From the NCBI GenBank assembly GCA_038040445.1, contig JBBPIG010000003.1, forward strand, positions 248,001 to 312,000: a stretch of DNA of 64,000 nt, given 5' to 3'. The DNA comes from Acidobacteriota bacterium (lineage in GTDB: Bacteria; Acidobacteriota; Blastocatellia; UBA7656). Position 1 is the stretch's first letter; each line of letters opens with the position of its first letter. The notes under the pieces are model-generated. The model worked only from the letters and a program-made list of their open reading frames with translations. It was not told the origin of the DNA and searched no databases. Made by a program: the position numbers and the translations under genes. Positions 60,711-61,332 of this stretch are shown piece by piece.

Positions 60711-61053
60711 CGTGCACGATATTATCTTCCGCCAACGAACTCAGTCAATCGATTCGAACCTGATCGCAACGGCCTCGAAAGTCGCAACCGGAGCCGCTTT
60801 CGTGCCAGTGTCGCGGAATAGGCTCCCAGAGCCAGTCTCAAGGCACCAGTCACACAACTGGCTCTGGGAGCCTATTGCATCCGCATCGCTATTTCCAACG
60901 TTGCATCGCTTCGCTCACTACAGGCCATTTAGATAAACAGACCGAGCACAAACAGCACAAACGAAGCGCAGTCGTGAAACTGGCTCTGGTAGCCGCTTTC
61001 AAGGATCAGATGATGTTTCGTCGTTTTGATGGCGTTCTCGGCAAAAAAAAACG
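60711..61053. repeat. Spacer with a 20-bp perfect inverted repeat
   Basis: AATAGGCTCCCAGAGCCAGT (60817-60836) and its exact reverse complement (60857-60876) enclose a 20-base loop. No T-run follows. No gene is evident in the rest of the spacer. Confidence 0.75.
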
Positions 61054-61099
61054 TTGACAAGAATCCGCGAAGCAAATATATACAACAATATGTTGTATA
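61054..61099 (+). promoter_or_regulatory. Consensus promoter with a perfect 9-3-9 operator dyad
   Basis: TTGACA (61054-61059), a 17-base spacer and TATATA (61077-61082) are close to consensus. Overlapping the -10 and the expected start is TATACAACA-ATA-TGTTGTATA (61079-61099), a perfect nine-base dyad. A repressor or activator binding there would control the tiny gene downstream. No known regulator site was matched. Confidence 0.75.
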
Positions 61100-61113
61100 A
61101 CATTTACGTTAGT

Positions 61114-61146
61114 ACACAAGAGTAGCAACGCTACAGTATCTTGTGT
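61114..61146 (+). promoter_or_regulatory. Leader stem-loop before the lysine-rich peptide gene
   Basis: ACACAAGA pairs with TCTTGTGT (outer arms, 61114-61121 and 61139-61146), with an inner GTAGC-AAC-GCTAC hairpin and a four-base bulge. It lies between the promoter and the ribosome site. It could stabilise the mRNA or act as a regulatory leader. Confidence 0.6.
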
Positions 61147-61180
61147 GCGAGGTAAAATTTAACGAAAGGAGAACCACAAT

Positions 61181-61261
61181 ATGGCAACTGCAAAGAAAGG
61201 CGGCGCGAAGAAGAGCACCAAGAAAGCCGCTCCAAAGAAAAAAGGCGCGAAGAAGAGATAA
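61181..61261 (+). CDS. 26-residue lysine-rich histone-like peptide
   Basis: ATG 61181 follows AAAGGAGAA by eight bases. The peptide (start MATAKKGGAKKSTKKAAPKK) has 11 lysines and one arginine in 26 residues, with A, G, P, S and T as the rest, much like the tail of H1-type histone-like proteins. Such a composition suggests DNA, RNA or polyanion binding. It is a complete unit: strong promoter, operator dyad, leader hairpin, good ribosome site, ORF and terminator. It could alternatively be a small RNA with an incidental ORF, but the ribosome site argues for translation. Confidence 0.7.
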   Translation: MATAKKGGAKKSTKKAAPKKKGAKKR

Positions 61262-61305
61262 CCTTCTACCGCCACGCAAAACGGGGGTTCTCTGTGTGAG
61301 AACGC

Positions 61306-61332
61306 GGGGATGGGTGACCATCCCCTTTTTCT
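61306..61332 (+). terminator. Intrinsic terminator of the lysine-rich peptide gene
   Basis: GGGGATGG (61306-61313), loop GTGA, CCATCCCC (61318-61325), then TTTTTCTTTC: a textbook rho-independent terminator, 45 bases after the stop codon. A smaller GTTCTC/GAGAAC hairpin precedes it. Confidence 0.88.

What the first reader, a model, noticed from the sequence alone, without database searches (positions are those of the whole stretch)
61054..61332. Self-contained regulated unit for a 26-residue lysine-rich peptide
In 280 bases there is a near-consensus promoter, a perfect 9-3-9 operator dyad over its -10, a leader stem-loop, a strong ribosome site, a 26-codon ORF with 11 lysines and a textbook terminator. 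So much signal for so small a product suggests an abundant, controlled DNA- or RNA-binding peptide, or a dual-function small RNA.
Basis: seen in the sequence. Interest (0 to 1): 0.72.

Follow-up and report, generated by a model that had tools for sequence, protein, structure and literature searches.

The report
Conserved leader driving a lysine-rich peptide
A free-standing bacterial gene makes a tiny, lysine-rich, histone-tail-like peptide under a strong promoter and an unusual fixed-spacing leader sequence that is conserved across a whole class of Acidobacteria and, in nearly every case found, sits in front of just this kind of peptide; neither the leader nor the peptide is in the family libraries searched.

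Summary
In window 61054-61332, TTGACA-17-TATATA, a perfect 9-3-9 dyad, a leader hairpin, AAAGGAG, a 26-codon ORF (11 Lys) and a terminator are all present. Homologues occur in all 6 other family genomes searched and in 71 of 162 class genomes (Blastocatellia, Acidobacteriota); in a phylum-wide draw, all 20 genomes with hits belong to that class. From the start-site region to the second hairpin arm, 66 distinct leaders align over 66 columns without a gap. The hits read are followed by a lysine-rich, low-complexity ORF (20-167 aa; one weak exception), including a second copy in the window's own genome. No Rfam, Pfam or NCBIfam family matches. Neighbouring genes differ between families, which argues against attenuation. 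The perfect 9-3-9 dyad is specific to close relatives; conserved class-wide are CAAnATnTTG at the start site and the boxes TTGTG/CACAA/CACAG/TTGTG. The hairpin has compensatory changes at four pairs; a crossing helix (pseudoknot) is possible, not proven. Best reading: an abundant histone-H1-tail-like polycation with a dedicated, class-specific leader, perhaps self-regulated. Shown: conservation and coding. Inferred: function and control.

The parts
61044..61051 (+). A-tract directly upstream of -35 (UP-element-like)
   Evidence: AAAAAAAA; A/T-rich at the same place in most of 68 homologues
61054..61059 (+). -35 TTGACA
   Evidence: TTGACA in all full-length true leaders, bar one TTGACT
61077..61082 (+). 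-10 TATATA, 17-nt spacer
   Evidence: TATATA/TATAAG/TATAAA/TATACA at a 17-nt spacer in 65 of 68 homologues
   Evidence: exact core unique in genome; perfect only in part of the family
61086..61095 (.). class-wide start-site dyad CAAnATnTTG
   Evidence: A5 columns 2-11; 8 double-changed cells, 0/500 shuffles as high
61085..61150 (+). class-wide leader element (66 columns, no gaps in 66 distinct sequences)
61112..61121 (+). leader helix S2, 5' arm GTACACAAGA
   Evidence: pairs with 61139-61148; 89.8% of cells paired, 17 double-changed cells
61139..61148 (+). leader helix S2, 3' arm TCTTGTGTGC
61093..61097 (+). box 1 TTGTA, candidate helix S1 5' arm
   Evidence: 88.8% of cells paired with 61132-61136
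61132..61136 (+). TACAG, candidate helix S1 3' arm; would cross S2 (pseudoknot)
61165..61171 (+). Shine-Dalgarno AAAGGAG
   Evidence: AAGGAG in 67 of 68 homologues
61181..61261 (+). ORF MATAKKGGAKKSTKKAAPKKKGAKKR (26 aa)
   Evidence: lysine-rich ORF at the same place in all 68 leaders; pN/pS 0.32; no Pfam or NCBIfam family
61270..61330 (+). 3' UTR conserved in the family: hairpin GTTCTC-TGTGT-GAGAAC (61287-61303) and terminator GGGGATGG-GTGA-CCATCCCC-TTTTT (61306-61330)
   Evidence: nearly identical in seven family members, more so than the ORF

Best explanation
A free-standing, strongly transcribed gene for a short, disordered, histone-H1-tail-like polycation (K/A/G/P/T/S repeats) that most likely coats or condenses a polyanion (DNA, RNA or polyphosphate). 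Its mRNA starts at or just before box 1 and carries a class-specific structured leader: box 2 (CACAAG) pairs with box 3 (CTTGTG) in a hairpin just upstream of the ribosome site, and box 1 (TTGTG) may pair across it with CACAG. I propose that the leader protects the 5' end and adjusts output, possibly by feedback: free peptide, itself an RNA binder, would bind the leader when in excess. Shown: unit, conservation, coding, near-exclusive leader-peptide linkage. Inferred: polyanion binding, RNA-level action, feedback.
For: Same unit in 6/6 family genomes and in 71/162 class genomes, 34 of 53 genera; the leaders read are followed by a K-rich ORF with AAGGAG, including the second copies in this genome and in G150; the stem pattern ACAAG-N17-ATCTTGT occurs only twice in this 6.7 Mb genome, both times at such units. 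S2 is the best-paired 6-bp helix of 1378 possible ones, with compensatory changes at four of its ten pairs in different lineages (A-U/C-G, C-G/U-A, G-C/U-A, U-A/A-U) and many G-U intermediates, as expected of RNA. Peptide: 36% K, 27% A over 68 homologues, no globular domain, pN/pS 0.32, differences concentrated at codon position 3 (155 of 255). Composition matches AlgP's C-terminal domain, which binds DNA and is needed for polyP granule positioning (PMC9239181).
Against: No expression or binding data. Sequence conservation in the boxes is so strong that few independent compensatory events can be counted on a tree, so an RNA structure is favoured, not proven. Predicted folds differ by family: in the Chloracidobacterium-like family (f4) S1 is extended and S2 weak; in f5 and f7 box 3 folds locally. 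Total lack of indels in variable loops also fits helically phased DNA sites. At least one relative (L017, genus g11) has a K-rich ORF without the leader; one f7 hit (L179) has a merely basic first ORF. Feedback by the peptide rests on the leader's restriction to this product only.
Confidence: 0.5

Rival explanations
1. The conserved boxes are DNA sites: an unknown repressor or activator binds the palindrome CAAnATnTTG over the start site and CACAG-nATn-TTGTG 48 bp downstream plus the half-site CACAAG; the hairpins are a by-product of inverted sites.
For: Boxes 1 and 3 share ATnTTGTG including the unpaired AT; spacing is fixed over 66 columns; the start-site dyad co-varies (8 cells), and its left arm should lie upstream of the start site; the perfect dyad is unique in the genome.
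Against: No regulon: CACARNATNTTGTG occurs about once per genome and beside unrelated genes. GC-to-GU changes in S2 are tolerated, as in RNA. The downstream half of the second palindrome (CACAG against TTGTG) shows no covariation.
Confidence: 0.27
2. The RNA is the main product: a structured transcript whose 5' and 3' parts interact, with a peptide as second function.
For: In the family the 3' UTR is more conserved than the ORF. In Pyrinomonadaceae-type (f3) relatives the 5' end UGUGCGCC is complementary to GGCGCACA in the 3' UTR of nearly all 37 loci (mean score 22.7 against 15.6 for shuffled UTRs), with matching changes in L111, L081 and L144.
Against: The 5'-3' complementarity is not seen in the window's own family. 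The ORF keeps frame, start, ribosome site and composition everywhere while its length varies. Swapping UTRs among f3 members costs little, so the covariation is thin.
Confidence: 0.14
3. Lysine attenuator: the K-rich ORF is a leader peptide and the terminator controls downstream genes.
For: Short Lys-rich ORF followed by a terminator.
Against: Downstream genes differ between families (cupin or acyltransferase, TrmL-like then TypA-like, dTDP-glucose dehydratase-like, phosphoglycerate-mutase-like, kinase) and are partly on the other strand; peptides reach 167 aa; no antiterminator evident.
Confidence: 0.03
4. Chance arrangement or decayed gene.
For: Low-complexity ORF of only 26 codons.
Against: Conservation across a bacterial class with purifying selection.
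Confidence: 0.01

Closest known systems
AlgP/AlgR3 of Pseudomonas (histone-H1-like, KPAA repeats; PMC9239181)
   Same: Lys/Ala/Pro-rich low-complexity repeats of variable number; in AlgP this tail binds DNA and is needed for the positioning of polyP granules
   Different: AlgP is 352 aa with an N-terminal helical domain; here the whole protein can be only 20-40 aa of repeat, with a dedicated conserved leader
Chlamydial histone H1-like Hc2 (hctB; PMC2848022)
   Same: Lysine-rich repeat protein whose size varies with the number of repeat units
   Different: 165-237 aa; no sequence family match here; no comparable leader known to me
Thermus ribosomal peptide Thx (from memory)
   Same: Basic peptide of about 26 residues
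   Different: Thx has a defined, non-repetitive sequence; no resemblance in sequence
cspA-type structured leaders, 5' stabilising hairpins (from memory)
   Same: Long structured leader on the mRNA of a small abundant nucleic-acid-binding protein
   Different: Different sequence; restricted to one class; not in Rfam

Membership tests
Bacterial histone-H1-like proteins (AlgP, Hc2) | Lys/Ala/Pro-rich repeats, intrinsically disordered composition | tested here: met
   36% K, 27% A; residues K,A,G,T,S,P make up over 90% across 68 homologues
Bacterial histone-H1-like proteins (AlgP, Hc2) | Repeat number varies between relatives | tested here: met
   20-167 aa
Bacterial histone-H1-like proteins (AlgP, Hc2) | Match to a curated family model | tested here: not met
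   no Pfam or NCBIfam hit up to E 0.1 for five members
Bacterial histone-H1-like proteins (AlgP, Hc2) | Binds DNA or polyphosphate | not testable with these tools
   no experiment
Known structured RNA leaders (Rfam) | Match to an Rfam covariance model | tested here: not met
   none at gathering score in the window; only chance-level matches in the unit
H-type pseudoknot leader | Two crossing helices, both with covariation | tested here: inconclusive
   S1 88.8% and S2 89.8% of cells paired, 25 double-changed cells, 0/500 shuffles, but few independent events on a tree
Amino-acid attenuator with leader peptide | Downstream biosynthetic gene of the same amino acid, conserved | tested here: not met
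   downstream genes differ by family
DNA operator of a regulon | Same site upstream of other genes | tested here: not met

The most novel reading that the evidence does not exclude
A class-wide RNA switch or pseudoknot leader, specific to polycationic peptides, that senses its own product (or polyanion/polyP status) and sets how much of a minimal, domain-less bacterial 'histone tail' is made.
Probability: 0.2. Interest if true: 0.82.

Novelty: new variant of a known kind. Interest (0 to 1): 0.62.

Why it matters
H1-tail-like repeats in the bacterial proteins compared here are parts of larger proteins; here the tail alone, down to 20-26 residues, is a gene of its own with a strikingly constrained leader, conserved across a class that includes cultured members. 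That makes two things directly testable: what a minimal bacterial polycation does to the nucleoid, RNA or polyP, and whether a low-complexity peptide can be controlled by its own leader RNA. Peptides this small and repetitive are easily missed by gene finders and family models.

Tried and rejected
Rfam search at gathering and relaxed thresholds: only chance-level matches. tblastn against phages: none, so no sign of a phage gene. Attenuator idea rejected by synteny. Regulon search for the start-site palindrome: single unrelated sites per genome, one inside a repeat array. Local CACAG/TTGTG hairpin: paired but no covariation. Pairing of box 1 with box 2: 80% of cells, weaker than S1 or S2. 5'-3' pairing: seen in f3 relatives, not in the window's family. 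First alignment was misled by unoriented minus-strand loci and was redone. Hits of the pattern scan in Clostridia and other phyla carry no lysine-rich low-complexity ORF after the pattern and are treated as chance. Structure prediction was not spent on a 26-residue disordered peptide.

Full report
What is there. The window lies at G000:C3:248001-312000 of a 6.7 Mb genome in 72 contigs. Reading the sequence confirms every element named: TTGACA 61054-61059, 17 nt, TATATA 61077-61082, a perfect 9-3-9 dyad 61079-61099, a leader hairpin, AAAGGAG, a 26-codon ORF with 11 lysines, and a terminator with eight pairs and T5. The transcript folds far better than shuffles (z -4.75). The inner dyad TACAACANNNTGTTGTA occurs exactly only here in the genome.

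Conservation. A DNA search of relatives finds the whole unit in 6 of 6 other family genomes, one same-order genome and several class genomes. After orienting the loci the -35, -10, leader, ribosome site, ORF start MAT and lysine-rich end line up, with ORFs of 24-92 aa. A covariance model of promoter plus leader finds it in 71 of 162 class genomes, 34 of 53 genera. A genome-wide pattern scan of GTDB species gives mostly Acidobacteriota, with record titles such as Blastocatellia, Pyrinomonadaceae, Chloracidobacterium, gp4 and the isolate Pyrinomonas methylaliphatogenes K22. A second model from 66 leaders searched in 396 genomes drawn from the phylum hits 20 genomes, all of the same class. So the element looks class-specific. 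Some class members, for example most genus g11 genomes searched, show no convincing match; one of these (L017) keeps a K-rich ORF with a different upstream region.

Linkage. In 68 leaders collected by pattern and filtered for a lysine-rich ORF, the ORF starts 29-52 nt after box 3 and AAGGAG is present in 67. The filter cannot create the link: of the pattern matches outside Acidobacteriota none qualifies, and the matches found by the covariance model without any ORF filter also lead into such ORFs. One weak hit in f7 (L179) has a basic but less K-rich first ORF followed by a 15-aa K-rich ORF. The window genome has a second unit at G000:C8:245049, with ORF MVLKSSTGGGKKKTTKKSTKKAGTKKSAKKR and its own terminator-like sequence. 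G150 has a second unit with KLTKVPP repeats. The stem pattern ACAAG-N17-ATCTTGT occurs twice in the window genome, exactly at these two units.

The peptide. Over 68 homologues: K 36%, A 27%, G 11%, T 7%, S 6%, P 6%; median length in the thirties; N-terminus MATK in 43, C-terminus KKR in 36. In 25 pairs of equal length and at least 80% identity, pN/pS is 0.32 and 155 of 255 differences are at codon position 3; the identity filter biases this downwards, so it is supportive, not precise. No Pfam or NCBIfam family matches. The closest described proteins are H1-like repeat proteins: AlgP of Pseudomonas, whose KPAA-repeat domain binds DNA and is needed for polyP granule positioning (PMC9239181), and chlamydial Hc2, whose size varies with lysine-rich repeat units (PMC2848022).

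The leader. Anchored on ACAA of box 2, 66 distinct leaders align over 66 columns with no gap. The box 2 to box 3 distance was imposed by my pattern, but the covariance-model hits, which allow gaps, show the same distance, and the box 1 to box 2 distance was not imposed. Consensus: nCAAnATgTTGTGcgccgtttactcTaGnCCACAAGAnnaaannnaaCACAGnATCTTGTGGtca. Invariant are ATnTnG at the start site, ACAA, and ATnTnGTG in box 3. Helix S2 (61112-61121 with 61139-61148): 89.8% of cells paired, 17 double-changed cells, 0/500 shuffles as high. Compensatory changes are visible at four pairs: C-G to U-A in G001, A-U to C-G between f1 and f3, U-A to A-U in G008, G-C to U-A in f5. Helix S1 (61093-61097 with 61132-61136): 88.8% paired. 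S1 and S2 cross, which would make a pseudoknot. A parsimony count on a tree finds hardly any independent double changes because the boxes barely vary, so the structure is favoured, not proven. Minimum-energy folds give S2 in f1, f3 and part of f6, an extended S1 in f4, and a local CACAG/TTGTG hairpin in f5 and f7. The start-site dyad CAAnATnTTG also co-varies, and its left arm should lie upstream of the start site inferred 6-8 nt after the -10, which keeps a DNA-binding component in play. A regulon with that motif was not found.

Surroundings. Neighbours are shared within families but differ between them: PHP-domain protein and DeoC-like upstream and a cupin downstream here; pseudopilin-like genes upstream and TrmL-like and TypA-like genes downstream in f3; dTDP-glucose dehydratase-like downstream in f5 and f7; M28-peptidase-like upstream in f6 (names by my reading of the sequences). 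This argues for a free-standing unit and against attenuation. The 3' UTR is conserved within the family beyond the terminator. In f3 a different conserved 3' UTR carries GGCGCACA, complementary to the 5' end UGUGCGCC in nearly all 37 loci; this is absent in the window's family.

Mechanism. Shown: a conserved promoter-leader-peptide unit under selection at the protein level. Inferred: abundant product (strong promoter with A-tract, strong ribosome site, terminator); binding to nucleic acid or polyP (composition, AlgP analogy); control at the RNA level (hairpin 5' of the ribosome site, G-U intermediates); feedback by the peptide (the leader is tied almost exclusively to this product). The main rival is control by an unknown DNA-binding protein at phased sites.

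Novelty. No Rfam, Pfam or NCBIfam entry covers leader or peptide, and the literature searches made here found no description; most subscription journals are not covered. I rate it a new variant of a known kind: a structured leader on a minimal H1-tail-like protein.

Noticed in passing
G000:C8:245049-245320 (L075): Second copy of the unit in the window's genome with a 31-aa lysine-rich ORF (MVLKSSTGGGKKKTTKKSTKKAGTKKSAKKR), diverged leader and own terminator-like hairpin.
   Followed up: partly
L071 (G150:C2:118347-118483 and downstream): Paralogous leader in front of a 132-aa protein of KLTKVPPTK-type repeats, a different lysine/proline repeat from the AKK type.
   Followed up: partly
L010-L161, f3 loci, leader 5' end and 3' UTR: In Pyrinomonadaceae-type relatives the mRNA 5' end UGUGCGCC is complementary to a conserved GGCGCACA in the 3' UTR, with matching changes in a few members (L111 CAACGCACA; L081, L144 AGCGCACA): possible 5'-3' closure of a short mRNA.
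   Followed up: partly
L012, L014-L016, L179 (f7): A second, 15-codon lysine-rich ORF (MPAKKKATKKKGGKK or MAAKKKAPAKKKGKK) lies just downstream of the first ORF.
   Followed up: no
window 60817-60876 and 60976-60995: Inverted repeat AATAGGCTCCCAGAGCCAGT (20-bp perfect arms) plus a third partial copy between the PHP gene and the unit; the word ACTGGCTCTGGNAGCC recurs at about 20 places in the genome against 0-1 for the reversed control: a dispersed repeat family.
   Followed up: partly
L017 (G028, genus g11): A 74-aa K/A/P-rich ORF without the conserved leader; most g11 genomes searched show no convincing leader match.
   Followed up: no
G000:C1:286467-286480 (L199): Perfect CACAA-N4-TTGTG palindrome about 130 bp upstream of an FtsZ-like open frame; probably chance, as such a site occurs about once per genome.
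   Followed up: partly
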